Positions 17,907 through 33,846 of a DNA stretch of 64,000 nt are shown one piece after another. The notes below the pieces were generated by a model. That model saw nothing but the letters and a program-made list of their open reading frames with translations, was not told the DNA's origin and made no database searches. Every line of letters begins with the position of its first letter. The stretch's first letter is position 1. Source of the DNA: Saprospiraceae bacterium (GTDB lineage: Bacteria; Bacteroidota; Bacteroidia; Chitinophagales; Saprospiraceae); assembly GCA_020631235.1 (NCBI GenBank), contig JAHDHQ010000005.1, positions 125,205 through 189,204 on the forward strand, given 5' to 3'. The position numbers and the translations under genes are program-made.

Positions 17907-18526
17907 GCATTAAATAATTTTAATAGTTGTCCTTTTGAGTTGATTTGCAATAGCTCATAAATATTTTTTATGTGAGTTCTCACTGTATTGATAGAAATAA
18001 AATGAGTATCTGCAATTTGCTGGTAGGAGAGTCCTTCAGCCATAGACTTAACGATGTCCATTTGGCGTTCTGAAAGTTTAGATTCCATATCATTCTTTTT
18101 GGGTAGAAAATGATTAGCTATTTTTCTGGCGATGGATGGGGACATAAATGACCCACCTCGAGCCACAGTAAAAATGGATTCCATAATTACTTTTAAAGAA
18201 ACTTTTTTAGACAAATACGAGCATGCTCCAGAACATAATGCTTTAAAGATAGTTTCACTTTCATCATACGTTGTGAGCATAATGATATCTAAGGATGGAT
18301 ATTTCTTTTTCAATATTGGGATACCTTCTAAACCACTCATACCAGGCAGACCGATATCTAATAGTAATATGTCCACTTCCTTTCCTTTAGCTAGTTCCTC
18401 CAAACCATCTTCCACACTAAATGCTGAGAATACCAATTCCATCATCACTTGCATATCAATCGACATCTTTAAACTATTATTTATGGTTTTATCGTCTTCT
18501 ATGATGGCAACTTTGATAGCATTCAT
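17903..18526 (-). CDS. NarL/FixJ-family response regulator
   Basis: DNA-binding response regulator of 207 residues. The receiver domain shows acidic pocket EDD (10-12), phospho-acceptor Asp57 in ILLLDIGLPG, Thr in MLTTYDES and Lys in YLSKK. The C-terminal LuxR-type helix-turn-helix is LSERQMDIVKSMAEGLSYQQ followed by IADTHFISINTVRTHIKNIY. It converges on the TPR kinase and the two stop codons share the bases TTAA (17903-17906). Its promoter carries the palindrome TCACAT-N4-ATGTGA found also before the two surface-protein units upstream, so it may regulate itself and them (inference). Confidence 0.93.
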   Translation of the reverse strand: MNAIKVAIIEDDKTINNSLKMSIDMQVMMELVFSAFSVEDGLEELAKGKEVDILLLDIGLPGMSGLEGIPILKKKYPSLDIIMLTTYDESETIFKALCSGACSYLSKKVSLKVIMESIFTVARGGSFMSPSIARKIANHFLPKKNDMESKLSERQMDIVKSMAEGLSYQQIADTHFISINTVRTHIKNIYELLQINSKGQLLKLFNA

Positions 18527-18565: not shown

Positions 18566-18611
18566 TAAAGGTAGTTCATCAAATTTTGATGCTTATCACA
18601 TGAAAATGTGA
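18566..18611 (-). promoter_or_regulatory. Regulon promoter 1: palindrome plus -7 box of the response regulator
   Basis: TCACAT-GAAA-ATGTGA at 18596-18611 is followed, on the minus strand, by 22 bases and then TACCTTTA (18566-18573). The flanking A/T bases extend the palindrome to 18 bp. No -33 TTTG is present at the normal place, so the palindrome occupies the position of a class II activator site. The same palindrome, spacing and box type recur at 28666-28711 and 33801-33846. Confidence 0.75.
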
Positions 18612-18612
18612 T

Positions 18613-18648
18613 TTTAAAAAAGCGATAAAGATTAAACCTTTATCGCTT
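18613..18648 (-). terminator. Terminator of the OMP/giant/FnIII operon
   Basis: AAGCGATAAAG (18620-18630) pairs perfectly with CTTTATCGCTT (18638-18648), with the T tract on the minus strand from 18613-18620. It lies 23 bases after the FnIII gene stop and directly before the response regulator's palindrome. Confidence 0.82.
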
Positions 18649-18671
18649 ACCAAACAAATCTTAATTAAAGC

Positions 18672-20747
18672 TTAGTAACTGACTACAGTACTTAGCTTTG
18701 ATTCTTTTCCCTTAATAGATTTTACTTTTATGGCGTAACTATAGGTGGTATCTGTTTTTATTCGATCATCAATAAACTCAGTGGTATTTTCTACTTTTTT
18801 ATAGCTGGTCAATTTACCATCATTAGATTTGCGATAAATTAGAAAGTAAATGCCTTCCGTATCTTCATAGTTCCAATTCAGTTCGCACGTTTGCTCGTTT
18901 TTACTAACAGACAAATTGTCTATACTTTTTAAATAATAGGCCTCCCCCAAGCTCACCATCATAATTGATGAATATTCACTCAAGTTATTTGCATCATCTT
19001 CTGATTGGAGTTTGTATTTATATACTATGTTTTCGCTTATTTCATTATCTATATAATGAGTTGCATCAGGGGATAACTCAGCTAATAGTTCCCATTCTTT
19101 ATCCGATGTTTTTCTGAATAATTTTTGTTTAACTACATCGTGACTTTTGCTATTATTAAATAGGATTTCGATGGATTCTTCTGAATTTTTATAATCAATC
19201 ATCACTGGGGCTGTCGGTGCTACAATATCTGGTTTCATGACCTTTAATATCTCAGATGGATCAGACTCATTAAACTTAAAGTCGATGGCAGTGACTTTGT
19301 AGTAAATCTCTTCAGTAAGTGTTTTAAGGTGCAATGAATCTAAGAAAAGTGTATCACCAAGATACTTAGTAGATCTAGCGGTAAACACTGATTTATCATC
19401 ATTGGAAAAATAGACTTTATAATTAGCAACATCTGCTTCGGGTGATTTATTCCATCTAAGTAAAAGATAGCCTGAACTATCAACTATTGCATTTAAACCT
19501 GTAGGAGAATCAGGAGGAGTAGTGTCAATCAAATTGGCCAAATGTCTCAATGATTGTACTTCGTTACTGGCAGTATCTATGGCAGAAACAAAGTAATAAT
19601 TGGCTATTAAATCAGTTTGCTTATGTTGATAGTTTCTTGTATCAGGGCTTAATAATTGGTCATTTAGTTTAGTGAAATATCCATTGGCTTTTGTAGAATG
19701 ATAAATATCGAAGCCTGATAAATCTTCTTCTTTCATTTCTGCTTCCCATTCCCATGAAAGGTTGATGGACATGTTTTCTTCTTGAGTACTGCTAAGTTTT
19801 CTTGGTGGCGAAGTAGAAGTTTTGTCTCTTCCCATTAATTTTAAAGTATCAGAATATGGGCTAAGATGGGCAAAACCGTCAATTCCAGCAATTCGATAAA
19901 AACGTGGAACATAATTTTGTTTAATTGAGTCTGTAAATGAAATGTGATTATAGGGGCCAGACAAATTAGTTTTAGTTTGGATAAATGGAATGTCATTTAA
20001 TCTAGTAAAATTTATACCATCGCTAGATTTTTCGATGTAAAAACCCGAATTTGATTGGCCCACATCCTTCCAAGTTAAAGTTACATTTAGATCATTTTCT
20101 TCAGTTGATACAATTTCTGGAGGGTATCTATAAACTGCACTTCTTTTTGAGATTTTATAATATACAGTATCACTGCTTATTTCTTTGGAAACATTACTTA
20201 CATAAAGTTTGTAGAAGTATGTATAATCTGCGTCGAAATACTCTTTATGAGAAAGCGCCGAGGCTTCGGCACATTTCTCGGAAAAATCTGCGGCTAGAAG
20301 TGCAAGACCAAATTTATTATTCATCTCCTCTTCGACCTTTAAATAGTTTGAAGAAGATGATTGTTGTTTCCCATAAATTGCTTGTGCTGCAACTAAAGGA
20401 AGCTTATTTTCATTATCACTAAATATTTTCCAGTCGTCTAAAGGCCAAGGTTTAATAGGAGAAGAACTGACTTTCTTAAAAAGCACATTGTCTGCATGTC
20501 TTAAACTATCATTTTTTACTTTTTTTAGTTCTAACACATAGCCATTGGAATTGGCGATCTCCCATAATGGATAATTATTAGGTGCCCACCTAAGGCAAAT
20601 ATTGCCATTATATATTTTGCCAATTAAACTCAATGATCGTTCTACTTTAGTTTGACTAGTTGTATCTGGATAGCTTTCTTCTTTTTCTTGTCCGTTTAAC
20701 AATGTAAAGGACCAAAAAAGTAGGCTTATTAATATTGTATGCTTCAT
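18672..20747 (-). CDS. Secreted fibronectin type III repeat protein
   Basis: Exported protein of 691 residues (signal MKHTILISLLFWSFTLLNGQ). Most of it consists of fibronectin type III modules, recognisable by VTLTWKDVGQSNSGFYIEKS, NLSWEWEAEMKEEDLSGFDI, LLLRWNKSPEADVANYKVYF and LNWNYEDTEGIYFLIYRK. The first 180 residues differ and may form a separate domain. No T9SS sorting domain is visible at the C-terminus (SKLSTVVSY). It is the last gene of a three-gene operon, 23 bases after the giant protein. By analogy with such clusters, it is probably a periplasmic or surface partner of the giant protein; function unknown. Confidence 0.8.
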   Translation of the reverse strand: MKHTILISLLFWSFTLLNGQEKEESYPDTTSQTKVERSLSLIGKIYNGNICLRWAPNNYPLWEIANSNGYVLELKKVKNDSLRHADNVLFKKVSSSPIKPWPLDDWKIFSDNENKLPLVAAQAIYGKQQSSSSNYLKVEEEMNNKFGLALLAADFSEKCAEASALSHKEYFDADYTYFYKLYVSNVSKEISSDTVYYKISKRSAVYRYPPEIVSTEENDLNVTLTWKDVGQSNSGFYIEKSSDGINFTRLNDIPFIQTKTNLSGPYNHISFTDSIKQNYVPRFYRIAGIDGFAHLSPYSDTLKLMGRDKTSTSPPRKLSSTQEENMSINLSWEWEAEMKEEDLSGFDIYHSTKANGYFTKLNDQLLSPDTRNYQHKQTDLIANYYFVSAIDTASNEVQSLRHLANLIDTTPPDSPTGLNAIVDSSGYLLLRWNKSPEADVANYKVYFSNDDKSVFTARSTKYLGDTLFLDSLHLKTLTEEIYYKVTAIDFKFNESDPSEILKVMKPDIVAPTAPVMIDYKNSEESIEILFNNSKSHDVVKQKLFRKTSDKEWELLAELSPDATHYIDNEISENIVYKYKLQSEDDANNLSEYSSIMMVSLGEAYYLKSIDNLSVSKNEQTCELNWNYEDTEGIYFLIYRKSNDGKLTSYKKVENTTEFIDDRIKTDTTYSYAIKVKSIKGKESKLSTVVSY

Positions 20748-20770
20748 GTTAATTTATTTGTGTTTAGCTA

Positions 20771-23700
20771 TTAAAAAGACACCTTAAATTTTTCTGAATG
20801 GAACGATGCACTATGCCAATCTTCGCTAGTATTTGCATTTAACGTAGGAAATCGATAATACATAGTTAAGTCCATACGTATATTATTTTCTTTCCTTTTA
20901 TAGAATTCATAATATTCGAAATCCTCTAACCACATATTTTCTTTGTCAGGATATATTTGCCCAATATTTTCTCCTAAACCAATCTCACCTAGACCCTTAT
21001 TACCTACTAAGTGATTTACAAAAGCAAGATCGGTTTTAATCATTATTGTCGTTTGATCCCAATTTATTGTATTTACATTTCCTGAACTGATTTCACTTTC
21101 TGTAAGGCTTAGCGTGTTAGTTTCTGCTTTGTTGCCTATGCCAATTTCATCTTGAATTCTATGAGCTTTAAGCAAAGGATCTCCGGCAGTTTCCCATGGG
21201 AATGTTTTGTCATGTTTATCTCTAAATTCTCTCCAAGATTGCTGAACATTACTATTACTCCAACTCTCACCATTTGGATTGCCGTGAATAAAATCGTAAT
21301 AAGCACCACCTGATTCGTTTAAGCTTTTAGCGTATCCATATTTGTATAATTCTTGAAATTCTATTAAAGGTGGGAATTGACGTCTACCATTTTTAGTAAA
21401 GCCTTCTAAATCAATCTTATCAAATGGCTCACCTTCATCTACTTTTATAGCGTTGCTCCATGGTACTTCAACTAATTTATAGTCAGGCACCCATGTTCCG
21501 GCACCATTTGGTTGCGGATTGTTGTAATCATAGTATCCTCCATTGCTAATGTATCGGTTAGCATATCTTAAAACCCCAATATGCTCTTTATTAACATCTA
21601 CTTTTTCTTTGTAGGTGTTAAATTTACTTGTTCCAAAATAGTATTGATACATTACTTTATCTACCGTTTTTACAGTTGATTCAGAGACCACATCAAATGC
21701 TTTTATATTAGCTGTGTCTTGTTCAGTTTCATTTTTGATAACAATTTCTTTTGTTTCACCAGTTTGTGAATTTTCAATGGTAGTTCTTCTAATAATTTCA
21801 ACTAAATAAACCTGCTCATTATTTAAGCTTGGTTTGTTGTAACTTATATATTGATAATTTCCTTTAATGCTATTCATAACTGATTCAGTAGAATTTCCGC
21901 TTGAGATTTCTGTATATTTTGCGATTAATTGTTGCTTATCATTTGATTTATTTATGACACTTGAATGGAGAGCACTTTTGAGTTTCATAAACCCTTTATC
22001 CCCATGGTTTTTCAGATGATATTTCTGTCCAATGATTGGATAAGTAAGATTTACCACTTGATCATCGATTTTATCTGGTGCAACACCAATTTTAAACTGA
22101 TTACTTTTAAACTCTTTCCAAACTTCGGCCTGAAAATTCTTATTGAAGACTTTAAGGTCTTTGTTATTATCGTTAAGATCTCTAGCTCTGATTTCTAATT
22201 GAACTGTATAGAATGTATTTTCCTTAAATTCATCACTACCATTGGTAATCCAAGTGAATTGTAAGCCATCTTGCTTCTTTACTTTATAGTATCCATTAAT
22301 AATGTTGTTAGGTTTTGCTGTCTCGAATACTTTAAATGTATGAATGTAAGGTTCTAGCCTATTCCATTTATTATAATTTTCGTGCTCAGGATCTTCCGAT
22401 TTTCTAAATTTGTATTCTCTCAATTCATTCAAGAGTGTAAGATCAAAATCAGTATAAACACTCACTTCTTTATCGCCATTTTTAGGGCTTAGCTCATCTA
22501 TAAAAGCTATATCTCCAAAAGGACTGTTTCCAGTAGGGTCACACTTACTCCCAAAATCGACAGCGAAACCAATAGAGCCTTTTACTAATCCGTCTAAGAC
22601 ATTATAATTTAGTCTTCCTTTACCTGCCACCCAAGTTGGATTAGGACCTCCCCCCTTGACGGCTAATGCCGCAGATGCTTGGAAAATATTAATATATTCA
22701 TCTACGAACCAAAGATCTACATGAACATCCACTGAGCCCCAAATTCCAGCATAGACTTGGCCTGTTGCATACCAGCCATTTATACCGATCGGACTTCCAT
22801 CACATAGTGTATTTTCGTTATGAACCATGGCGATATCAAAGCCCGCTGTTGCACCAAAGTTTACATGAACAAAATCATAGTAAGTTTCATCCATATTATA
22901 ATAGAATTGAAGCCCAAATGCAACACCTTTACCAACATCATATAGAGTTTGCTTCTTCTCCCTTTCGGCAATGGCTTTATCTAATCCAGCTGCATTGCCG
23001 TTATTGCTTGCCTCTTCTGTTTTATTTTTATATCCAGGATATTCTCCGCTTAGAATTTGATCAATTTCTTCGGGCATGGAAGGCAGTTTATTGCTTAAGC
23101 CTGGACCAATCATGAAGTAGCCTGCGAGAATGGGTTTAGATTCTGAAGGAATGGCATGTATTCGTAGTTTTCCTCGTTCATCAACATCTTCTTTTTGAGG
23201 TTTCCCCATAAATACATACCAATTCTTAGGGTTTTCTGTTTCAAAATGCATCTCAGCTTCAACCATCAAACCATCATTACCTGCTCCTGATATAACACCA
23301 GGCATATTTACATAGGTATCAAGCTTACCATGAAATACAAGCTCGGGATCTTTGGCTAAATTCGAAACATTAATATTTATATCTCCTTTGGCTGTAACCT
23401 TCGCATTCGCAGGATCACAACCTTTCCCAGTTAAAAAGTAGGCATTGGTTGATAGAGAAATATCTAAGCCTGTTCCTTCATTTGTAGTAAATTCTATTCC
23501 TAATGTTCCATCAGCAAAAAAGGTTTCCGTTTTCTCATATAGCCCTATAATTACAGATGCACTCAGACCCAAAGTGACATCACCTTTATTTTGTGGTGCT
23601 TGAGGAGAGAAAGTCAAACCTGACGGATTTGCTGTTTCTTCATTTTCGGTATCATCTTCAGATGGAGTGATGCTAGCTAAATCAATTGCTTGGTCATTAT

Positions 23701-26700
23701 CTATAGTCATGTTGTAATAAGCACCACCACCAAAACCATATAGACCTTGACCGGTGGTTCCTATTGGAACTCCTTTAGCTAGCTTAATTAAACCTTCTGC
23801 CTGCCAGTACGAATAATAATTAGACGAACCATAGTCACTAAAACTACTTCCTTCTTCTTTATAAGCTCCAAACTCTGTAGCTAGTTGAACATCCATACCT
23901 GCAGGTGTGCCTACCGCTAGGTTTCCTTTTACACCTTTATAATCATCTTCATTGTAGAAACTTAAATCTCCATCAAAGCTAAATCCGGATATAGAACCAC
24001 CTACGGTCATGCTTTCTGGATTGACAGATTGTAATGTATAATATCCATTGTCCATAGAGCTGACAAAGCTTATCTCGGCGCTAGCTGTTAGCCCATCTTT
24101 ATCCCCAACTAAACTAAGTTTTGGTTTTATGGTAAATGTTATTCCATTATCATCACCTTCAATGCTTGAGTATTCTGAGGGGTCAGCGTTTATTGGAATT
24201 CCATTAATACTGCCTTGAGCATCCTCATCAGTTGTATCTTCCTCATTTGCATCATTCTCTTGCGCTGCTAAGCTAAAATCGGGAGCCGTAATTCCTTCTT
24301 TTGTACTTAATAAAAAACCTTCAAATCCTAGACCTGGAATATTAAAATCCATAGTTTCAGCAAGAGAAGCTACATCTTCTGGAAGTATATTTTCATTGAT
24401 ACTAATCACTCCATTTAGGATTGCTGAAATTGATTTCTCCGTTTTCGAATATTTGAAAGTGATTTTACTGTCACCTCTAAGTTCAATGTTGGCCACTAAG
24501 GCAGGAACTGTTAGTTGTTCATCAGGTTCAACACTAAATGTTATGCCTACAAAATCGTCTGAGACGTTATCATTAGCTTCTTCATTTATGATTTGGAGAG
24601 TACCTTGATAAGCAAGTCCTTCTCCTTTTTCTAATATGGGTAAACCAATTTGTCCGTGAATACTACTTTGTTCAAAAGTGTTTCGCACAATTTGTAGTTT
24701 GAAAGTATCTAAAGACATTGCCCAGCCATCAAAACTACCTTCATCTTTATTTAATATACCTCTTTGTTCGAATCCTGTTGTCAAACCATCTTCATCGATA
24801 ATTAAGTGGTTTATTTCAAGGGCTAAACGATCTTCACTTAAGGCCCAATCTGCTGGAGTTTGCATGGTAAATCGTTGAATGTAAAGACCTTCCCAAGTAT
24901 TGGCTTGATCCTCGTTTTCAAAATCTAGTACTTCAGATAAAAAGCCAAATTCATCACTATCTGCCATGTTTTCATCAAAAGGACTTTGTATATCTGATTG
25001 GTCAAAAACGGCTTCTTCTACTTCCCAACTAAAACCTGCTAATCCTGGTACTTGGAACGCACTGATACTTCCAGATAATACATATTGATTTCCTTTTGAA
25101 AGATCTCCTTTTAAGTTGGCAACTACTTGTCCATCACCGATCGATCCATTGGTTCCATCTGGCAAAACTATATCTCTGGAAAAAGTAAGATCTGCCTGAA
25201 TTCTACCTGAATCAAATCCATTACAATCCATTAAAATATAACAACCACTGTCTTGTGCAGCACCATCGCCAACGCCTCGAAATGACATTTGGTTTTCACC
25301 ATAGCTAAAGTTATAATCACTCATCAGATATAATAAAACTCCTTTGTCAAAACCATTAGGTGAGAAATTAATTTGTGATGCGGCAAAACTTGGCAATTCA
25401 ATCCACTCTGGGTTTTCCATCGAAAACATAGCTTCTAATTCAGCATTAGTAGGTGTAAATAGCATATTAGAAAGGCCAATAACCATTTCTTGACCATCAA
25501 TATTTCTATCCCAACCTAAAGGAAGACTTACAGCCTCGTCACCTGTTAATGCAGAAACTAGTTTGCTTGTATTCATATAAGCGTCCCTTAGTTCAGCAGA
25601 ACCATCCACGCCTAAAACTGGGATTTGAGCACCTAGATGTTCCACACCTTCTATCATGGGTGAGATTTCGCCATTATCTTGCATGGCAATGGCTTGACCA
25701 TTAAAAACTTGGTTTGATTTATTTACCTGCAAATCGGAAAATGCTACCTTGATACTTGCACCCGCTAAGAAATTTACAGAAATTTCACCTTCTCCTGTAT
25801 ATCCATTTGCTTCATCACCATCACTTATGGTATTTATTTTCATAGCAAATTTTCCTATTTTAACTTCATCCTGTTCTTCAATTTCAATGTCATTTTGATC
25901 CGTTGGAAGTTGTGTGCTTGTAGTGCCGACACATCCTCCTTCATCATTGGCCACAATTTCTTCATCTTCGTCCTCGATTTCTTCTTCAGGTAATGTCCCA
26001 AAGGTGAAATGAATCACCTCACTATGTCCGCCAAATTGGAAAGCAACTTGATTTTCTGGGTCTATGGCTTTTAATTTAACAGCATAAGTATGTCCATATT
26101 CTAATAGGTCTTCATTATCATTAGTATTAAGTGAATAACCATTGTCTAAGTTCTGTAGATATACCTCAAAAGCATCTACATTTGGAGTAAACATGGCTTC
26201 TTGTTTTTGGCTTATTGGATAATTATTGGCCGTTAAATCGATCAGCTTTAATTCGTATTCTATCCGATCTTTTAATTCAAAGTCAGTTAGATTATGTATC
26301 CAATTCAGATTGATAATTTCAAAATCTTCAAATATTTGATCATTAAAGGGGAACATGATCTCAGGCCTAGAAGGAAATTCTGCAGTAAAGGAAAAACAAC
26401 TTATCTCACCTGGTTCTGATAATGGTTCACCAAATTCACTAAAGGCATGAACACAAATTTCGTATTCTCCTTCTGGTAGTTGTCTGTACAATAGTAAGTT
26501 ATTTCTTTGTTCGTCTGACAAGCCTTGAATATTTGCATCTTGATCCGATAAGCCAGCGAAGGCTTCCTCTATCTCATCTTCACCAAGAATCGTTGATCCG
26601 GGTCCGAATATTATTGATTGGTTACTGAGTCCATCGAGTTCAATACTGAAGCCACCTGTTTGCTTTAGAGAAGCAGAAAATATAGCTTCTACTGGTTCGC

Positions 26701-26884
26701 TAGTATTATTATTTACGATAAAAATTCCTGTTTCTAAATATTCTGAATAGGCCTCTAAATTGGTAGGGAAAGGAGGCGTGAGTAAAACACTAATATCCAA
26801 GGGGTAAGTATTTTGTCCAATGCTGTTTGTAACACATATTAGAACTGTTAAAAGGATCCATAGGAATTGATGTATTTTTTTCAT
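20771..26884 (-). CDS. Giant secreted protein of 2037 residues, TANFOR-domain-like
   Basis: Exported protein (signal MKKIHQFLWILLTVLICVTNSIG). The N-terminal 180 residues resemble the TANFOR domain of Bacteroidota (start YPLDISVLLTPPFP, later LPEGEYEICVHAFSEFGEPL). A fibronectin-like region and an acidic linker (EEEIEDEDEEIVANDEGG) follow. The middle, about 350-1450, is a long beta-rich stretch of repeated phrases such as VAGSISGF-like strands, GVISINENILPEDV and YFMIGPGLSNKLPSMPEEID. It ends in an Ig/FnIII-like part and a unique C-terminus. No YPNP-type T9SS domain is seen. Second gene of an operon with an outer-membrane protein (24-base gap) and an FnIII protein (23-base gap). Function unknown; TANFOR assignment is from memory. 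Confidence 0.72.
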   Translation of the reverse strand: MKKIHQFLWILLTVLICVTNSIGQNTYPLDISVLLTPPFPTNLEAYSEYLETGIFIVNNNTSEPVEAIFSASLKQTGGFSIELDGLSNQSIIFGPGSTILGEDEIEEAFAGLSDQDANIQGLSDEQRNNLLLYRQLPEGEYEICVHAFSEFGEPLSEPGEISCFSFTAEFPSRPEIMFPFNDQIFEDFEIINLNWIHNLTDFELKDRIEYELKLIDLTANNYPISQKQEAMFTPNVDAFEVYLQNLDNGYSLNTNDNEDLLEYGHTYAVKLKAIDPENQVAFQFGGHSEVIHFTFGTLPEEEIEDEDEEIVANDEGGCVGTTSTQLPTDQNDIEIEEQDEVKIGKFAMKINTISDGDEANGYTGEGEISVNFLAGASIKVAFSDLQVNKSNQVFNGQAIAMQDNGEISPMIEGVEHLGAQIPVLGVDGSAELRDAYMNTSKLVSALTGDEAVSLPLGWDRNIDGQEMVIGLSNMLFTPTNAELEAMFSMENPEWIELPSFAASQINFSPNGFDKGVLLYLMSDYNFSYGENQMSFRGVGDGAAQDSGCYILMDCNGFDSGRIQADLTFSRDIVLPDGTNGSIGDGQVVANLKGDLSKGNQYVLSGSISAFQVPGLAGFSWEVEEAVFDQSDIQSPFDENMADSDEFGFLSEVLDFENEDQANTWEGLYIQRFTMQTPADWALSEDRLALEINHLIIDEDGLTTGFEQRGILNKDEGSFDGWAMSLDTFKLQIVRNTFEQSSIHGQIGLPILEKGEGLAYQGTLQIINEEANDNVSDDFVGITFSVEPDEQLTVPALVANIELRGDSKITFKYSKTEKSISAILNGVISINENILPEDVASLAETMDFNIPGLGFEGFLLSTKEGITAPDFSLAAQENDANEEDTTDEDAQGSINGIPINADPSEYSSIEGDDNGITFTIKPKLSLVGDKDGLTASAEISFVSSMDNGYYTLQSVNPESMTVGGSISGFSFDGDLSFYNEDDYKGVKGNLAVGTPAGMDVQLATEFGAYKEEGSSFSDYGSSNYYSYWQAEGLIKLAKGVPIGTTGQGLYGFGGGAYYNMTIDNDQAIDLASITPSEDDTENEETANPSGLTFSPQAPQNKGDVTLGLSASVIIGLYEKTETFFADGTLGIEFTTNEGTGLDISLSTNAYFLTGKGCDPANAKVTAKGDININVSNLAKDPELVFHGKLDTYVNMPGVISGAGNDGLMVEAEMHFETENPKNWYVFMGKPQKEDVDERGKLRIHAIPSESKPILAGYFMIGPGLSNKLPSMPEEIDQILSGEYPGYKNKTEEASNNGNAAGLDKAIAEREKKQTLYDVGKGVAFGLQFYYNMDETYYDFVHVNFGATAGFDIAMVHNENTLCDGSPIGINGWYATGQVYAGIWGSVDVHVDLWFVDEYINIFQASAALAVKGGGPNPTWVAGKGRLNYNVLDGLVKGSIGFAVDFGSKCDPTGNSPFGDIAFIDELSPKNGDKEVSVYTDFDLTLLNELREYKFRKSEDPEHENYNKWNRLEPYIHTFKVFETAKPNNIINGYYKVKKQDGLQFTWITNGSDEFKENTFYTVQLEIRARDLNDNNKDLKVFNKNFQAEVWKEFKSNQFKIGVAPDKIDDQVVNLTYPIIGQKYHLKNHGDKGFMKLKSALHSSVINKSNDKQQLIAKYTEISSGNSTESVMNSIKGNYQYISYNKPSLNNEQVYLVEIIRRTTIENSQTGETKEIVIKNETEQDTANIKAFDVVSESTVKTVDKVMYQYYFGTSKFNTYKEKVDVNKEHIGVLRYANRYISNGGYYDYNNPQPNGAGTWVPDYKLVEVPWSNAIKVDEGEPFDKIDLEGFTKNGRRQFPPLIEFQELYKYGYAKSLNESGGAYYDFIHGNPNGESWSNSNVQQSWREFRDKHDKTFPWETAGDPLLKAHRIQDEIGIGNKAETNTLSLTESEISSGNVNTINWDQTTIMIKTDLAFVNHLVGNKGLGEIGLGENIGQIYPDKENMWLEDFEYYEFYKRKENNIRMDLTMYYRFPTLNANTSEDWHSASFHSEKFKVSF

Positions 26885-26908
26885 GTTAGTAGATTGAAAT
26901 ATATTTGA

Positions 26909-28639
26909 TCAATTAGTTTTTTTAGGTTTGGATGTTGACTTGAAATCAGTCAAAAAGCTGTAACCAACTCTGGCTGTTATTCTTAATTCTTCGAATGGAT
27001 TTTCAGACCTTGATCTATTTAAATAAGAGACATTTAACTGGCTACTAAAAGCTTTTGAGGGTTTGTAGCTCGTACTTACTTTTGTGCTTAAGGTGTTTCC
27101 ATCTTGATTGAAATCGAGAAAGTTTAAATGATAAGAGCCTCCTAAGTTTATCTTCCATTTATTTTCAAAAAGTTTTTTACCAAGTTTAAGCGAAAGACCA
27201 TAGCGCTGAGTATTTCTGTCAGGAAATTGATTTTCAGAATAATTGAGCCCAGTTGAGAGGATGAGTTTTTTTGGTTTAATGTTTATGTTATAGCTAATAT
27301 TACCATTGTAATTATCTATGTTTCTTTCTTCATCTAAGACACTTAATACATCAACTAATTGCTGAGCATTAGCGTTTAGAGTAATGCTAGAAGGGTATGT
27401 TTTGCCTAATTTGACACGAATAGTTCCACCTTTTATATTGGTTGTTTGGGCATATCTTAAGGTATCAGACACGTTAATAAATCCTGGTGTTCTGTCTGTT
27501 TGGAAATTAGAATATCTTGCAGACACAACTAACCATTTTGAAGGAATTAAACTTAAGGTTCCATTGGCAATCTGTCGTTTATTAGTATAGCTTCTTAAGC
27601 TATTTAAATTATTTCTTTGAACACCTCCTGATCCGTTAAAACGAAGTCTATTTTTCCAAGCTGTGAGATTAAACTTGATGGTATAATTTTCGAGATCCTC
27701 TTGGAAATAATAGATGCCTAAACTTTTATAATGTGGATCCACTCTTTTATAGTTAGCGCTTACACCAAAGTTTTTAAATTTTAATCCTACACTTGCATCA
27801 CCAGCAAATTCTAAGCGGGTGGAAAGATTAACAGTAAATAGTTTATCGAGTTGTTGGAGGCTATTATTTGAACTTGAATCTATGAGTTCTATAGCAGAAT
27901 TTTGATCTAAAGTAATAGCACTTGCAGCGACATTTGCCCCAATAAAGAAAGACTTAAATAGGGTAACTTGGAAAGCGCTTCCTAAGGCAATATTTTCTTC
28001 AGCTTTTACCCATTCATTGAGTTCATCGGGAGATGTGATCAGTGGGTTGTCCTTGGCTCTGAGGAAATTAAATTCAATGTAGCTCTTATCATTTCCAAAT
28101 CCTGTAAGTAGGGTTAATGCTTTTCTTTTATAAGTTTCTAATAATTCTATATTTCCAACCAAAGTATCAATTTGAGCCAATGGGTTTTCTAAGTTTCCGT
28201 AAGCTGCCGAGAATCTAAATTTGCCTGGCGTTAATTCTACACCTCCACCTTTAATAACTTGTCCATTAAAAATGTAAGGGTTTAGATTAAGTCGTACATT
28301 TCCAGCTTGAAGCGAAATCCATTTCCATCTTGGATTAATTGCGTATCTGTTAAATGGGTTGTTTAGTGAGCTCTGCGAATCTCTGTATGTAAACGACATT
28401 GGAACACTAAATCCATAGATAGAAAATGTTGTATTTGCTGAAAGAAAATAGCTAAATGGGCTTCTTCTGGAATCAATCCCAAAAGCATCGTAAGCAGAAG
28501 AACCAATACTTATGTTTCCATTAATTTTAAATGGATTGTTTTTATCAAAGTTTTCTAAATTTTGGCTTTTTATATTGTTTAATGCCCCAAAAAAAAGCAA
28601 CAATGATAGAGTCAATTTAAGAAGATAGGAATTTTTCAT
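26909..28639 (-). CDS. Outer-membrane beta-barrel-like protein, first gene of the giant-protein operon
   Basis: Exported protein of 576 residues starting at the ATG at 28639, which gives a good signal peptide (MKNSYLLKLTLSLLLFFGAL, then KSQ). The rest is alternating amphipathic strands typical of a large beta-barrel (FKINGNISIGSSAYDAFGID, FSVPMSFTYRDSQ, KWISLQAGNVRLNLNPYIFN, INLGGSYHLNFLDF), ending with RVGYSFLTDF and a basic tail. An in-frame GTG at 28699 lies inside the regulatory palindrome and upstream of the -7 box, so it is rejected as start. It probably anchors or exports the two secreted proteins encoded next to it (inference). Confidence 0.78.
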   Translation of the reverse strand: MKNSYLLKLTLSLLLFFGALNNIKSQNLENFDKNNPFKINGNISIGSSAYDAFGIDSRRSPFSYFLSANTTFSIYGFSVPMSFTYRDSQSSLNNPFNRYAINPRWKWISLQAGNVRLNLNPYIFNGQVIKGGGVELTPGKFRFSAAYGNLENPLAQIDTLVGNIELLETYKRKALTLLTGFGNDKSYIEFNFLRAKDNPLITSPDELNEWVKAEENIALGSAFQVTLFKSFFIGANVAASAITLDQNSAIELIDSSSNNSLQQLDKLFTVNLSTRLEFAGDASVGLKFKNFGVSANYKRVDPHYKSLGIYYFQEDLENYTIKFNLTAWKNRLRFNGSGGVQRNNLNSLRSYTNKRQIANGTLSLIPSKWLVVSARYSNFQTDRTPGFINVSDTLRYAQTTNIKGGTIRVKLGKTYPSSITLNANAQQLVDVLSVLDEERNIDNYNGNISYNINIKPKKLILSTGLNYSENQFPDRNTQRYGLSLKLGKKLFENKWKINLGGSYHLNFLDFNQDGNTLSTKVSTSYKPSKAFSSQLNVSYLNRSRSENPFEELRITARVGYSFLTDFKSTSKPKKTN

Positions 28640-28665
28640 AAAGCCTCTATTTAAAGAATGTACTG

Positions 28666-28711
28666 TAAAATTAAAGAGCAGCAAAGCTATTTTAATCACA
28701 TAAAAATGTGA
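28666..28711 (-). promoter_or_regulatory. Regulon promoter 2: palindrome plus -7 box of the OMP/giant/FnIII operon
   Basis: TCACAT-AAAA-ATGTGA (28696-28711; 20 bp with flanking AA/TT) precedes TAATTTTA (28666-28673) by exactly 22 bases on the minus strand. The predicted leader to the ATG at 28639 is about 20 bases. The 22-base spacer is not similar to those of the other two copies, so conservation of the palindrome is not due to recent duplication. Confidence 0.78.
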
Positions 28712-28775
28712 TTTAAGAGGGGTTAGTGCTCATTATTTCTAATGCTTGAAGTACAATAATTACCTTGTGAGGAAT

Positions 28776-28809
28776 AAAAAAAGAGGTGCAAAATAACATT
28801 GCACCTCTT
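28776..28809 (-). terminator. Terminator of the Ig-repeat adhesin gene
   Basis: AAGAGGTGCAA (28781-28791) pairs perfectly with TTGCACCTCTT (28799-28809); the A run at 28776-28782 gives the U tract on the minus strand. It separates the adhesin from the next regulated operon. Confidence 0.82.
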
Positions 28810-28832
28810 AGACTTTTATATATAAACCATCA

Positions 28833-31800
28833 TTACTTAATTATTGATATTTGTTTGCTTGCTTTGATATTTGGGCCAATTATTTGGAGCAAATAATTAC
28901 CTGCTGGAATCATAGAAATATCAATAGTTTCTGTAATGGAATCTGTCTGATTAATTGTTTGCTTATGTACCAACTGTCCTTGATAGTTAAAAACATTCAA
29001 TGTGCCTTCAAAATATTCTGAAGATTGTAAATCAACAGTTATGTGGTTTGTTGCAGGATTCGGATAAGCCTTGAATGAGTTTACAATAGTTAAATGTTGA
29101 TTTGAAGAAATTGTTTCTATAACTGTCTCAAAGGTGCTAGTACAACCGTGCACATCAGTTACATAAACTTCGATTCTTCCTTCGTTTAATCCTTCGGCAA
29201 AGCTTCCTTGTTGACCATCTTCCCACTCAAAATCAAAGGGACCATCACCTTCAATAACTGTAATGTTTGAAGTTCCATCGAAACCTGCAGGACTAGCTGG
29301 TGTATTTTCAAAACTAACTTCTATGGTAGGTGGATTTTCAAGAAGGGTGCTTTGAGTTGCCTGGCAACCATTAGGACCAGTTACTATCACGGTGTAGATT
29401 CCAGCTACACCTGCTTGGATGTTTTGATCAAATGATTCAAAGCCCTCAGGCCCATTCCATTCGAAACTTGAACCATTTGGAGGGTTCGTTAATGTAATAT
29501 CTCCTAAGTTGTCAAAACAGTCGATTATGCTTGCTTCTAAATCAAATACTGGATCATTAAAATCAGCTAAAACTTCTACAGTTGATGTCACACTACAACC
29601 GTTTGCTGCAGTAGCTACGACTGTATATTCTCCAGCATTTTGAACCAATGGATTAGGGTCAATAGATATAAATCCATTGGGTCCAGTCCACATGACTGAT
29701 ACATCATCATCCGAAGTGACAGATAAATTAATTACTGCATTGTTACAATCTAGTGTGCCGCCTGTTGCAAAAATTTCGGGCGTTACCACATCACTAAATA
29801 CTTCGACTGTTGCTACAGAGACACATCCATTTGCACTAGTAGCTTCCACGGTATAAAATCCAGCTTCCACAACTGTTGGGTTAGGCTCAGATGAAGTAAA
29901 ACTACTCGGACCGCTCCACAAATAGCTTACTTCAACATCAGCGCTTGCTGAGATGACAATAAATTCATTTTGGCAATCTAATGTCCCACCTGTTATTTCT
30001 ACTTCGGGAAATTCAAAATCTTCTTCTATCGTTAAAGAGGCTACTCCCGAACAACCGTTTTGTCCAGTTACAGTTAAAACATACATTCCTCCTTCAGAAA
30101 CTTCTGGCGTTAATTCACTGGATGTAAATCCATTGGGACCAGTCCACATAATATTGATGTTTTCACCTTCCACACTTCCTTGTAAATTAGTTGTTGGCTG
30201 AGCACAATTTATTTGACCGTCGAAAACCACGGGGATTGGTGAATTAAAATCTTCTTCAATTACTATAAATGTGTTAGCATTACATCCATTGGTACTTGTA
30301 ACTTCAATGGTGTAAACACCAGGTTCAGCTACTTCTATGTTTTTATCATCTGAAGTAAAGTTATTAGGTCCCGACCATGCGTATATTACATCTTCATTAT
30401 TTATCTCGACATTGATAATAACTGTACTATTATTACAATCAATAACTCCACCGGTTAATGATATAACTGGTAGATCATCATCAGCAGTTACTTCTACCGT
30501 CATCATACTAGTACAACCATTGGTGCCGGTTGCAACCACAGTATAGCTTCCAGCCGTATTTACTTGAGGATTTGCGATTGCTGCTTCGAAATCATCCGGA
30601 CCAGTCCACATATAATTTACGTTTTCATCTGTTGAATTTGCACTTATGGTAATCACGTTGTTTTCACAATTTAGTAAACCACCAGTGGCTGTTAGATCAG
30701 GTCCTTCACCATCAAAGCTTACTTGTACCATAACAGAATTCATGCAGCCATTTTGACCTATTGCAGTTGCGGTATAATCTCCTGCTTCACTAACAATAGG
30801 GCTTGATTCTTCACTAGAAAATCCGTTCGGTCCTTCCCATTCAAAAGTTACTCCTTCATCTGGGGATGAAACTGAAATAGTAGTGCTTTCATTGGCACAA
30901 TTAAGCATTCCACCCTCCGCAATGACAACGGGAATGGTTAAATCTTCTGAAGCAACGGCTAAGCCAGTAGCGACACAGCCATTAGGTGCCATTATAGTCA
31001 CTGTGTAAATACCTGCTTCATCAACAGATATTGTAGATTCATCGCTAGTAAACCCGTTAGGCCCAGTCCAAGTATATGTGACACCTTCTGTGTCTGAACT
31101 GGCTGACAAACTAGTTTCTGCATTATTGCAATCGATTACTCCACCAACGGTGGTTAAGTCTGGAACATTGGTATCGGTTAACACCTCCACTTGGGCAGAA
31201 GCAGTACATCCATCTAATGTTTCAGCAGTTACAGTATAAGTACCAGCTTGGCTTACGATTGGATTTTGTTCGTTCGAAGAAAAACCACCTGGACCTTGCC
31301 AAGAATACGTTACATCCGATGTAGAGTTTGCTGACAAGGTTATTGCTCCCCCTTGACAATCTAAGGTTCCACCTTCAGCCGTTAAATCAGGAGCTGTTTC
31401 AAAATTTACATTGATATTATCTTCAGCGCAACAACCATTTTCTGAGTAAACAACTACAGAGTAATTATCAGTTGTGTTTACCGTAATGCTTTGGGTTGTT
31501 TCTCCAGTGGACCACAAATAACTAGTGCCTGCTTCTGCTGTAATTTCATAATCAGGCACATCGCACAATACTATATCTTCTCCTAAATCGATAGAGAAAT
31601 TATTTTCAATGGAAACATTCCAATTGTATGATACGGCGTTTCCACAATAATCAGAAGCCGTATAGGTATAGGTGTAAACTTCAACGATATTAGCATCACA
31701 ATCATCTGTAGAAGAAGTAATAGTAAATTCAATTAAGTCTGAAACATCTCCATTGCAAGCATCCATGCTCATTAATACTGGTGGATCTGGAAATTCGTCA

Positions 31801-33773
31801 CCACATTGAATGACAACATCAGCTATCTGGCCTGATAAAATAGGTGCTTGAGTATCAACTAATTCTATAGATAAAGAGGTAAACCCTATAACACCGCATG
31901 CACTTTCTGCTTGATATTCAATAGTAGTCAAGCCAGATGATGATCCATCACATTCTGCGTCGAAAAAGCTACCTGACTCAGATCCAACAACTTCACCATT
32001 ACAAGTTCCTGCACTCGGAATATAACTATCGATGATCTCTTGTAAATCATCTACTCCACATTCGCCGGTAACCAACATTGGTAAATCAAAAGGTGCTAGC
32101 CAGACCGGTTGTAATTGGTCTGTAATTATTACTTCATAACTTGCCTCAGCAATATTTCCACAAGCATCTTCGATTATGAAGGAGTGTGTTTCAGTCTCAA
32201 TAATCCCACTTCCATCAGAACAATCATTAGCTACAATTGAAATGGTTTCGATTAATCCAAAGGTAACATCTCCTTCACAAGCATCATCTGCGAATATATC
32301 TACTCCAATAGCAGGAATATTTGGTAAAAAGTCATCGCCGCAATCATACATAATTGGTTCAGATGGGATACCACTAATAATAGGAGCTTGTGTATCTAAA
32401 AGCTCTACAGTTATGGATTTATAGCTTGAACTAACTACATCAGGAAAAGGTCCATTTTCATTTCCTGTTTGGTACCATTCAGTTAAACTATTTGCTCCGC
32501 CACAAATATTTAATTCGTATGCATTATCTAATTTTTCTATCCAATTTTCAAGATTAGGACAATTGTCAGTAACACTTAAATTTGCTTCTTCATCTAAAAT
32601 CATTTGGGCTGCATCGTCAACCCCACATTCTCCAATTAATGTTATATTTAAATCTCCTGTAAAAGAAGGTGCAATACCATCCATTACACTCACGACGGTT
32701 TGACAAGTTGTTTCATTCCCATTTCCATCTTCAATAGACCAATTATAGGTATAATATCCAGGGGTATTACTCCATGAGTATGGAAATGAACTGCCTGGAA
32801 TTAAACCGTAAGGACCGAATAAAGTGCCATCAGGGTCAATCAGGGTTACTAGCCCTGATACATCACAATTGTCCATAAACGTGGGATCAATGATTTCCCA
32901 TTCTGCTTCACAATTCTCATCAAAGAATACATCAAAACTAGTTGGACATTCCACGAAAACCGGAAATTCAGAATCCGTAGCTTCGAGTAAAAAATTATAA
33001 GCTGGACTTGTACAACCATAATCATCTTCCACAAATATATTGTTCTCACCTGTTTCTATCCATAAATTAATAGCTTCTACATTTGCTGATGTGGAATTAC
33101 TTAAATCATTTGCATAAACAGTCGATGCAGCACAAATTCCATCTTCCACCACAATGTCAATTTGTGCTTCAGAGCCAGGGCATTCTGGCGCTGATCCATT
33201 TAAAACGACACTGGTCACAGATGGACAAATATTTCCAAATACAATTTCAGAATAGAATACTTCTGAAAAATAGCTTGCTTGAAAATTATCATTACAAATT
33301 TTTATTTTCCAAATTCCATCAGCATTAATACCATCATCGTTAAGACTGCCAAAATCATCCTCAGGTTGTGATTCCACATAGTATAAACTGCTCCATGTAT
33401 CTTGAGGTGTAGGGAGTGAAGGACACGGAATGTATCTCACAGCACAAATTCCTCCAGACCATCCGGGAAATGATCCTGAAGTGGATGCTGCCATTACAAA
33501 TTCTGAACCATCGGGTGCTTCTAATACTACGTCGACAAAATAGCCGTCAAAGACATCTATATCTATAAAAACTTGAGTAATGCCTAAATTATCAACGCCT
33601 AAATTGCCAATGCCGCTCACACTCACATTAATTTCTTGAGGAGCTCCTACACATTCGTCAAATACAGGACCGGTAAAGTCTCCAACGAAAGTTTGTGCAA
33701 AAGCACTTCCTGTTAAACTTATAAAAAGTAAAATTTTTAAATAATTAATAATGGTAAGTAGATAGGATTTCAT
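28833..33773 (-). CDS. T9SS-exported adhesin with P-domain-like head and nine tandem Ig-like repeats
   Basis: Surface protein of 1646 residues. After the signal peptide (ends SAFAQ) comes a jelly-roll domain resembling the proprotein-convertase P domain (VDVVLEAPDGSEFVMA, NADGIWKIKICND). Several HYR/Ig-like modules follow to about residue 790, then nine tandem repeats of about 76 residues, each with the pattern GG-xxx-C ... W-x-GPNGF ... AGxYTVxxxxxNGC. The two Cys per repeat probably form a disulfide. The last 80 residues are a T9SS type A sorting domain (FKAYPNPATNHITVDL, ending KASKQISIIK), processed by PorU. ATG at 33773 is chosen: the upstream TTG at 33803 falls on the -7 box. Confidence 0.88.
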   Translation of the reverse strand: MKSYLLTIINYLKILLFISLTGSAFAQTFVGDFTGPVFDECVGAPQEINVSVSGIGNLGVDNLGITQVFIDIDVFDGYFVDVVLEAPDGSEFVMAASTSGSFPGWSGGICAVRYIPCPSLPTPQDTWSSLYYVESQPEDDFGSLNDDGINADGIWKIKICNDNFQASYFSEVFYSEIVFGNICPSVTSVVLNGSAPECPGSEAQIDIVVEDGICAASTVYANDLSNSTSANVEAINLWIETGENNIFVEDDYGCTSPAYNFLLEATDSEFPVFVECPTSFDVFFDENCEAEWEIIDPTFMDNCDVSGLVTLIDPDGTLFGPYGLIPGSSFPYSWSNTPGYYTYNWSIEDGNGNETTCQTVVSVMDGIAPSFTGDLNITLIGECGVDDAAQMILDEEANLSVTDNCPNLENWIEKLDNAYELNICGGANSLTEWYQTGNENGPFPDVVSSSYKSITVELLDTQAPIISGIPSEPIMYDCGDDFLPNIPAIGVDIFADDACEGDVTFGLIETISIVANDCSDGSGIIETETHSFIIEDACGNIAEASYEVIITDQLQPVWLAPFDLPMLVTGECGVDDLQEIIDSYIPSAGTCNGEVVGSESGSFFDAECDGSSSGLTTIEYQAESACGVIGFTSLSIELVDTQAPILSGQIADVVIQCGDEFPDPPVLMSMDACNGDVSDLIEFTITSSTDDCDANIVEVYTYTYTASDYCGNAVSYNWNVSIENNFSIDLGEDIVLCDVPDYEITAEAGTSYLWSTGETTQSITVNTTDNYSVVVYSENGCCAEDNINVNFETAPDLTAEGGTLDCQGGAITLSANSTSDVTYSWQGPGGFSSNEQNPIVSQAGTYTVTAETLDGCTASAQVEVLTDTNVPDLTTVGGVIDCNNAETSLSASSDTEGVTYTWTGPNGFTSDESTISVDEAGIYTVTIMAPNGCVATGLAVASEDLTIPVVIAEGGMLNCANESTTISVSSPDEGVTFEWEGPNGFSSEESSPIVSEAGDYTATAIGQNGCMNSVMVQVSFDGEGPDLTATGGLLNCENNVITISANSTDENVNYMWTGPDDFEAAIANPQVNTAGSYTVVATGTNGCTSMMTVEVTADDDLPVISLTGGVIDCNNSTVIINVEINNEDVIYAWSGPNNFTSDDKNIEVAEPGVYTIEVTSTNGCNANTFIVIEEDFNSPIPVVFDGQINCAQPTTNLQGSVEGENINIMWTGPNGFTSSELTPEVSEGGMYVLTVTGQNGCSGVASLTIEEDFEFPEVEITGGTLDCQNEFIVISASADVEVSYLWSGPSSFTSSEPNPTVVEAGFYTVEATSANGCVSVATVEVFSDVVTPEIFATGGTLDCNNAVINLSVTSDDDVSVMWTGPNGFISIDPNPLVQNAGEYTVVATAANGCSVTSTVEVLADFNDPVFDLEASIIDCFDNLGDITLTNPPNGSSFEWNGPEGFESFDQNIQAGVAGIYTVIVTGPNGCQATQSTLLENPPTIEVSFENTPASPAGFDGTSNITVIEGDGPFDFEWEDGQQGSFAEGLNEGRIEVYVTDVHGCTSTFETVIETISSNQHLTIVNSFKAYPNPATNHITVDLQSSEYFEGTLNVFNYQGQLVHKQTINQTDSITETIDISMIPAGNYLLQIIGPNIKASKQISIIK
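29330..31390 (-). repeat. Tandem array of nine Ig-like coding repeats
   Basis: Nine successive coding units of about 228 bases. The most constant parts encode WTGPNGF and NGC. The copies differ clearly in sequence, pointing to an old array rather than recent slippage. A more divergent unit (SYLWSTGETTQSITV ... NGCC) precedes the first. Confidence 0.82.
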
Positions 33774-33800
33774 AATTACTTGTTTGATTATATAATATCT

Positions 33801-33846
33801 CAAAAGTAATTTGATGATCCATCCTCTCAGTCACATGAAAATGTGA
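33801..33846 (-). promoter_or_regulatory. Regulon promoter 3: palindrome plus -7 box of the adhesin gene
   Basis: TCACAT-GAAA-ATGTGA (33831-33846) precedes TACTTTTG (33801-33808) by exactly 22 bases on the minus strand; the ATG at 33773 follows the box by 27 bases. Same layout as at 18566-18611 and 28666-28711. Confidence 0.78.

What the first reader, a model, noticed from the sequence alone, without database searches (positions are those of the whole stretch)
18566..33846. Three promoters with the same palindrome at the same distance: a surface-protein regulon
TCACAT-N4-ATGTGA occurs at 18596, 28696 and 33831. Each copy lies exactly 22 bases before a -7 type box on the minus strand (TACCTTTA at 18566, TAATTTTA at 28666, TACTTTTG at 33801). 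I found no other copy in the window. The spacers are unrelated in sequence, so the pattern is not a simple duplication. The normal -33 element is absent and the palindrome takes its place, as for a class II activator. The units controlled are a NarL-type response regulator, the OMP/giant/FnIII operon and the Ig-repeat T9SS adhesin, each closed by a strong terminator. That the response regulator binds the site is inferred.
Basis: partly seen in the sequence, partly recalled or inferred. Interest (0 to 1): 0.8.

Follow-up and report, generated by a model that had tools for sequence, protein, structure and literature searches.

The report
Self-controlled switch for surface proteins
In this Saprospiraceae bacterium one short mirror-image DNA sequence sits at the same distance from a predicted start signal of three neighbouring transcription units, and comparison with hundreds of related genomes suggests that it is most likely the docking site of a sensor-linked regulator that would switch on its own gene together with a set of large, predicted cell-surface proteins.

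Summary
TCACAT-N4-ATGTGA occurs three times in the window and nowhere else in the 4.19 Mb assembly, each copy exactly 22 nt before a TAnnTTT box with unrelated spacers. In 398 Saprospiraceae genomes palindrome core plus spaced box occurs 147 times against 11 for the reversed control. Such a palindrome precedes the RR gene itself in 17 of the 30 nearest relatives, 1 of 20 intermediate and 0 of 20 distant RRs. RR residue 184 tracks the site's outer base pair: Asp with C..G 25 of 25, Thr with T..A 12 of 14, and likewise at other promoters of the same genomes (48 of 51; 14 of 16). Tree-corrected pairs agree in direction but are too few for significance. Likely mechanism: class II activation by an autoregulated TPR-kinase/NarL-type pair, working like P. 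gingivalis FimS/FimR but not shown to be it. I found no description of this site, nor a named function for the outer-membrane protein it would control. No binding or expression data exist.

The parts
18596..18611 (-). palindrome 1, TCACATTTTCATGTGA read on the minus strand
18566..18573 (-). -7 type box TACCTTTA, 22 nt after palindrome 1
17903..18526 (-). NarL-type response regulator, 207 aa (Response_reg + GerE), P0001; recognition helix TVR-T184-HIK
28696..28711 (-). palindrome 2, TCACATTTTTATGTGA read on the minus strand
28666..28673 (-). -7 type box TAATTTTA, 22 nt after palindrome 2
26909..28639 (-). outer-membrane beta-barrel protein, 576 aa (P0003), first gene of the operon
   Evidence: predicted barrel, mean pLDDT 79.7; no Pfam or NCBIfam hit
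20771..26884 (-). giant protein, 2037 aa (P0005), no Pfam or NCBIfam match
   Evidence: relatives in 65 of 150 family genomes
18672..20747 (-). FnIII protein, 691 aa (P0006), last gene of the operon
   Evidence: fn3 37.1 bits
18620..18648 (-). terminator-like hairpin after the FnIII gene
   Evidence: z -3.6
33831..33846 (-). palindrome 3, TCACATTTTCATGTGA read on the minus strand
33801..33808 (-). -7 type box TACTTTTG, 22 nt after palindrome 3
28833..33773 (-). Ig/PKD-repeat protein with a T9SS sorting tail, 1646 aa (P0004)
   Evidence: Por_Secre_tail 44.8 bits, cut-off 27; TIGR04183 44 bits, cut-off 23
28781..28809 (-). terminator hairpin after the adhesin gene
   Evidence: z -4.3
15582..17906 (+). 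TPR histidine kinase, 774 aa (P0002), tail to tail with the RR; likely partner
   Evidence: TPR, HisKA_3, HATPase_c; a homologous kinase lies near the RR in relatives

Best explanation
Three predicted promoters in the window share a 16-bp palindrome exactly 22 nt upstream of a -7-type box, and this palindrome is most likely the binding site of the NarL-type response regulator encoded beside it, which is predicted to activate its own gene, an OMP-giant-FnIII operon and the gene of a T9SS adhesin. Inferred chain: the adjacent TPR histidine kinase senses an unknown signal and phosphorylates Asp57 of the regulator; a dimer binds the two half-sites and occupies about -50 to -35, where the -33 element would lie; from there it recruits RNA polymerase as a class II activator. 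Activating its own gene would make the response self-amplifying. Shown by sequence: the sites, the spacing, their absence elsewhere in the genome, their conservation in relatives, the autogenous position, and the tracking of RR residue 184 with the outer base pair. Inferred: binding, activation rather than repression, the kinase pairing, the signal, and a role of the OMP-giant-FnIII module in surface display.
For: Three sites and no others in the genome. Same arrangement in two further genomes of the genus. 147 matches against 11 reversed-control matches in 398 genomes, 37 of 112 genera. The G that completes TAnnTTTG is present in 67 of 96 boxes though not asked for. With no spacing imposed, 9 of 19 boxes within 44 nt of 32 exact palindromes (the 3 window sites included) lie at 22 or 23 nt. 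A site lies within 350 bp upstream of the RR gene in 17 of 30 nearest RRs (one of these, L085, about 334 bp away), 1 of 20 intermediate, 0 of 20 distant. Residue 184: D 25/25 C..G; T 12/14 T..A and 2 one-sided; S 7/10 one-sided; F 3/3 CTACAT..ATGTAG. At promoters of other genes: D genomes 48/51 C..G, T genomes 14/16 T..A. Of 9 GerE-matching proteins in the own genome only this RR has the TVRTH helix and such a palindrome upstream. OMP-operon promoters with site and box in 7 genomes of 4 genera (genera).
Against: No binding or expression data. The Asp/Thr contrast is a single change on the tree; tree-independent pairs for Thr against the rest are 5, none contrary, sign test p 0.06-0.25. 18 of 43 Asp-type RRs in the set have no site found. 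One Ser RR has T..A and two have C..G. The OMP-operon site of G218 (a contig of the same length as one of Lewinella cohaerens) is T..A although its RR has Asp. In G053 and G145 the palindrome near the operon lacks a TAnnTTT box at 22-23 nt. Targets outside the genus are mixed, and the excess of signal-peptide-like starts is weak (44/72 against 85/194, p 0.013). Many exact palindromes in relatives lie inside genes and look like chance.
Confidence: 0.8

Rival explanations
1. The RR binds the same three sites but represses: the palindrome covers the -33 region and would block RNA polymerase until phosphorylation changes.
For: The palindrome overlaps the place of the -33 element.
Against: The fixed 22-23 nt distance to the box is the habit of activators that touch polymerase; a repressor needs no fixed phase. 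CrbR, a LuxR-family RR, activates from -52 to -36 (PMC5715377, passages).
Confidence: 0.12
2. A CRP/FNR-like or other unrelated regulator binds the palindrome; the RR is only one of its targets.
For: CRP-family sites are palindromes made of TGTGA/TCACA half-sites (recalled), and CRP/FNR homologues are reported in a Saprospiraceae MAG (PMC8510549, passages).
Against: The half-sites are in the opposite order to CRP's TGTGA-N6-TCACA (recalled). The promoter co-occurs with the RR, and the outer base pair follows an RR residue. I did not search the genome for CRP homologues.
Confidence: 0.05
3. The three palindromes are chance or copies of one duplicated promoter.
For: Some palindromes in relatives lie inside genes and look like chance (for example L006, L009, L011-L014; G003 and G128).
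Against: 0 matches in 100 shuffles; flanks unrelated; 147 against 11 in the reversed control; conserved upstream of orthologous genes.
Confidence: 0.01

Closest known systems
FimS/FimR two-component system of Porphyromonas gingivalis
   Same: TPR sensor kinase plus response regulator that turns on surface fimbriae genes in a Bacteroidota member (PMC11053733 and PMC1974823, passages). P0002 hits the NCBIfam FimS model with 68.5 bits. That FimR is LuxR/NarL-type is recalled.
   Different: 68.5 bits is far under the FimS cut-off of 600. FimR is reported to bind the promoter of pg2130; the passages give no palindrome. Here the targets are a T9SS adhesin and an OMP-giant-FnIII operon, and the regulator gene carries the site itself.
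CrbS/CrbR with the ACTU motif (Pseudomonas fluorescens)
   Same: LuxR-family RR, inverted repeat at -52 to -36 before several promoters, needed for activation (PMC5715377, passages).
   Different: Other motif sequence, sigma-70 promoters, acetate genes, other phylum, different kinase.
NarL (nitrate response) and its 7-2-7 sites
   Same: Same receiver and GerE architecture; aligned over residues 6-198, T184 with NarL V189. 16-bp inverted repeats and base contacts by V189 are recalled.
   Different: Other half-site, other kinase type, and a surface-protein regulon.
PorX/PorY-SigP control of the T9SS (P. gingivalis)
   Same: Two-component control of T9SS-related functions in Bacteroidota (abstracts of PMC4800418 and PMC8050853, listings).
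   Different: Those abstracts describe control of secretion-machinery genes by PorX, with a sigma factor in one; here a GerE-type regulator would control a T9SS cargo and an OMP operon.

Membership tests
NarL/LuxR-type response regulators | receiver domain plus C-terminal GerE HTH, both above the Pfam cut-off | tested here: met
   Response_reg 71.8 bits (cut-off 30.2), GerE 48.2 bits (cut-off 23.5)
NarL/LuxR-type response regulators | conserved phospho-acceptor Asp and receiver signature | tested here: met
   E10, D11, D57, T85, K107 invariant in 16 relatives
NarL/LuxR-type response regulators | binds an inverted repeat as a phosphorylated dimer | not testable with these tools
   only indirect: autogenous sites and residue tracking
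Class II activator promoter | site centred near -41.5, abutting or replacing the -33/-35 element, at fixed phase | tested here: inconclusive
   fixed 22/23 nt to the box; centre about -42.5 only by transfer of flavobacterial start sites; no transcript ends
FimS/FimR | kinase reaches the FimS equivalog cut-off | tested here: not met
   68.5 bits against a cut-off of 600
FimS/FimR | TPR sensor domain plus HisKA_3/HATPase | tested here: met
FimS/FimR | controls a fimA or mfa1 fimbrial cluster | tested here: not met
   no fimbrillin-type domain in the controlled genes
CRP/FNR site | TGTGA-N6-TCACA half-site order (recalled) | tested here: not met
   the sites read TCACA-N6-TGTGA
T9SS cargo (adhesin P0004) | C-terminal Por_Secre_tail sorting domain above cut-off | tested here: met
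   PF18962 44.8 bits, cut-off 27; TIGR04183 44 bits, cut-off 23

The most novel reading that the evidence does not exclude
A large lineage of NarL-type regulators in Bacteroidota follows a one-residue, one-base-pair recognition code (residue 184: Asp reads C:G, Thr reads T:A, Ser tolerates either, Phe goes with T:A at the second position). Each regulator marks its own promoter with its site at a fixed class II distance, so that the specificity of many orphan regulators, including other cores such as TCACCC-N4-GGGTGA in Emticicia and Runella and TCGCAT-N4-ATGCGA in Hymenobacter, could be read from genome sequence alone. In the window's genus this switch controls an undescribed outer-membrane display machine (barrel, 2000-residue partner, FnIII protein) and its Ig-repeat cargo.
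Probability: 0.45. Interest if true: 0.72.

Novelty: new member of a known kind. Interest (0 to 1): 0.56.

Why it matters
I found no description of site preferences for this group of NarL-type regulators in Bacteroidota (searches; open-licence PMC papers only). If the code holds, a regulator's targets can be predicted from one residue and its own promoter. It also gives a handle on an uncharacterised outer-membrane operon that, in the genomes looked at, lies next to T9SS cargo or collagen-like proteins. A named type strain, Lewinella cohaerens DSM 23179, has the autogenous site with the expected spacing, so the prediction can be tested.

Tried and rejected

Rows dropped or chosen: the L085 site about 334 bp upstream was set to 'no site' from then on; near-identical RRs were removed before the counts. 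The promoters fetched are 120 of the 147 matches; 7 of the 120 with other flanks were left out of the counts, and 17 of the remaining 113 had no frame of at least 80 codons starting within 350 nt. The 20 'mid' and 20 'para' RRs were picked by me from the list, not drawn at random; the list itself was cut off. One search used 93 of the 120 promoters, those of genomes whose RR I had read; 24 are the RR's own, leaving 69 (51 Asp, 16 Thr, 2 Ser genomes). Some of these genomes have several RRs (for example G149 and G214). Of the 29 RRs read, 8 were added to the tree.
Full report
What is there. The window lies in a 4.19 Mb assembly with 43 contigs. It belongs to Saprospiraceae: its same-genus relative G109 has a contig of the same length (137073) and RR identity as a record titled Saprospiraceae bacterium MAG-172. 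TCACAT-N4-ATGTGA occurs at 18596, 28696 and 33831 and nowhere else in the assembly. On the minus strand each copy ends 22 nt before TACCTTTA, TAATTTTA and TACTTTTG. The spacers are 23-27% identical. Downstream lie a NarL-type RR (17903-18526), an operon of an OMP (26909-28639), a 2037-aa protein (20771-26884) and an FnIII protein (18672-20747), and a 1646-aa Ig/PKD-repeat protein with a T9SS sorting tail (28833-33773). I take ATG 28639 and ATG 33773 as starts; the longer frames run into the promoters. A TPR histidine kinase (15582-17906) lies tail to tail with the RR.

Conservation in the genus. G109 has exact sites before its adhesin (55% identical) and its OMP (62%), and CCACATTTTCATGTGA before its RR (83%). 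G188 has sites before its OMP and RR, and one at a contig end whose gene is missing. Each of the three genomes has exactly three promoters of this type.

Conservation in the family. Relatives of the RR carry the broader site YCACAT-N4-ATGTGR, most often CCACAT-N4-ATGTGG. The pattern CACAT-N4-ATGTG, 23 or 24 nt, TAnnTTT gave 147 matches in 62 of 398 genomes (37 of 112 genera), against 11 for the reversed control (the sums are mine from its table). I fetched 120 of the 147. Of these, 113 have Y..R flanks, 96 of the 113 have a frame of 80 codons or more starting within 350 nt, and 24 of the 96 are the RR itself. Spacing is 23 nt in 82 and 22 nt in 14 of the 96, only these two being allowed; G follows TAnnTTT in 67 of 96 although not asked for. 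With no spacing imposed, 9 of 19 boxes within 44 nt of 32 exact palindromes, the 3 window sites included, stand at 22 or 23 nt (tallied). The palindrome with a correctly placed box precedes the OMP-giant operon in G000, G109, G188, G017, G198, G115 and G218; in G053 and G145 a palindrome lies near the operon but without TAnnTTT at 22-23 nt. In G053, G145 and G098 a small protein with a T9SS-tail match (above the Pfam cut-off only in G053) and a collagen-repeat protein, in G053 and G145 with an S74 chaperone domain, stand ahead of the OMP gene; no palindrome was found at the G098 operon.

Which protein binds. Four lines point to the RR. First, a site within 350 bp upstream is found in 17 of the 30 nearest RRs (one of them about 334 bp away), 1 of 20 intermediate and 0 of 20 distant ones. 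Second, over 150 genomes, 21 of 25 with the promoter have an RR at E 1e-45 or better, against 41 of 125 without it (Fisher p 2.4e-6, one-sided). Of the four exceptions two (G003, G128) lie inside reading frames and look like chance, one (G147) has a more distant RR with its own site, and one (G124) has no RR at E 1e-35. Third, residue 184 of the RR, in the recognition helix TVR-x-HIK and aligned with NarL V189 (its role in base contact is recalled), tracks the outer base pair of the autogenous site: D 25 of 25 C..G, T 12 of 14 T..A and 2 one-sided, S 7 of 10 one-sided (2 C..G, 1 T..A), F 3 of 3 CTACAT..ATGTAG. Eight of these RRs were added after the rule had been seen on the first set: the six with a YYACAT-type site (F 1, T 4, S 1) fit it, one T has TCACCC..GGGTGA, one T has no site. 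Fourth, at promoters of other genes the same residue predicts the pair: 48 of 51 C..G in Asp genomes (exceptions A..G, C..C and T..A) and 14 of 16 T..A in Thr genomes. Caution: Asp forms one clade, and tree-independent pairs for Thr against the rest are 5, none contrary, sign test p 0.06-0.25, so the code is consistent but not proven. The G218 OMP site (T..A with an Asp regulator) and one Ser regulator with T..A stand against a strict code. In the own genome, of 9 proteins with a GerE match only this RR has the TVRTH helix and such a palindrome upstream.

Mechanism. In Flavobacterium psychrophilum TAnnTTTG lies at -12 to -5 (PMC9723704, passage). By that ruler the palindrome would cover about -50 to -35 with its centre near -42.5, the class II position, in place of the -33 element. 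CrbR, a LuxR-family RR, works from an inverted repeat at -52 to -36 (PMC5715377, passages). I therefore infer activation. A kinase homologous to P0002, by its kinase domain in most cases, lies near the RR in 20 of 23 relatives with up to 6 kb of flank and in 8 of 30 loci with 1.5 kb, so P0002 is the likely partner; the signal is unknown. Self-activation is inferred from the autogenous site.

What it controls. The OMP has no Pfam or NCBIfam match, and its homologues are called 'hypothetical protein' where a source named them in the 120 listed of 249. Its model (mean pLDDT 79.7, about 25 strands) is a large barrel; the best structural matches, tied, are OprD-type porins and MtrB, with TonB-dependent transporters and pilus ushers close behind, so no function follows. 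Its neighbours suggest, without showing it, a surface export or display module for T9SS-linked fibres and adhesins. Family-wide the other targets are mixed, so 'surface-protein regulon' should be kept to this genus.

Wider pattern. In titled genomes a palindrome of the same 6-N4-6 build but another core, with the box at 23 nt, stands before related RRs: TCACCC..GGGTGA in Emticicia agri and Runella zeae, TCGCAT..ATGCGA in Hymenobacter mucosus, TCCCAT..ATGGGA in a Calditrichia MAG. These are 4 of 80 loci examined; most of the 80 show no such palindrome.

Literature. Papers were seen as search listings and as passages (PMC1974823; PMC8510549; PMC8757827; PMC9723704; PMC11053733; PMC5715377); none was read whole. 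I saw no description of this site or regulator group in them; the library holds open-licence papers only.

Noticed in passing
L199, L209, L216, L237, L254, L257, L260, L261, L272: In 9 of the 24 RR promoters the ATG lies exactly 35 nt after a palindrome with 23-nt spacing, i.e. at about +1 if the box starts at -12: these RR messages may be leaderless.
   Followed up: no
L064 6802-9780 (G109): In the same-genus genome G109 a second kinase-like gene (992 aa) sits between the RR and the TPR kinase; the window has none there.
   Followed up: no
L161, L163 (G149) and L220 (G279): Promoters of this type also precede genes whose products start with a LuxR-type HTH without a receiver, hinting at cascades.
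   Followed up: no
L067 16461-18620, L068 10549-13022, L077 11240-13898: In other genera the OMP-giant-FnIII operon is preceded by collagen-repeat proteins (two with an S74 chaperone domain) and a small protein with a T9SS-tail match, instead of the Ig-repeat adhesin.
   Followed up: partly
L334, L341, L355, L365 upstream of the RR: Palindromes of the same build but other cores (TCACCC, TCGCAT, TCCCAT) stand 23 nt before the -7 box of related RRs in other Bacteroidota and a Calditrichia MAG.
   Followed up: partly
L022 around 1501: One exact palindrome in a relative is extended by CCC/GGG and followed by a T run next to a gene end: a terminator hairpin that mimics the site.
   Followed up: no
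window 26909-28699 and 28833-33803: Longest-frame starts (GTG 28699, TTG 33803) run into the promoter elements; the signal-peptide-like ATG starts at 28639 and 33773 fit better.
   Followed up: yes
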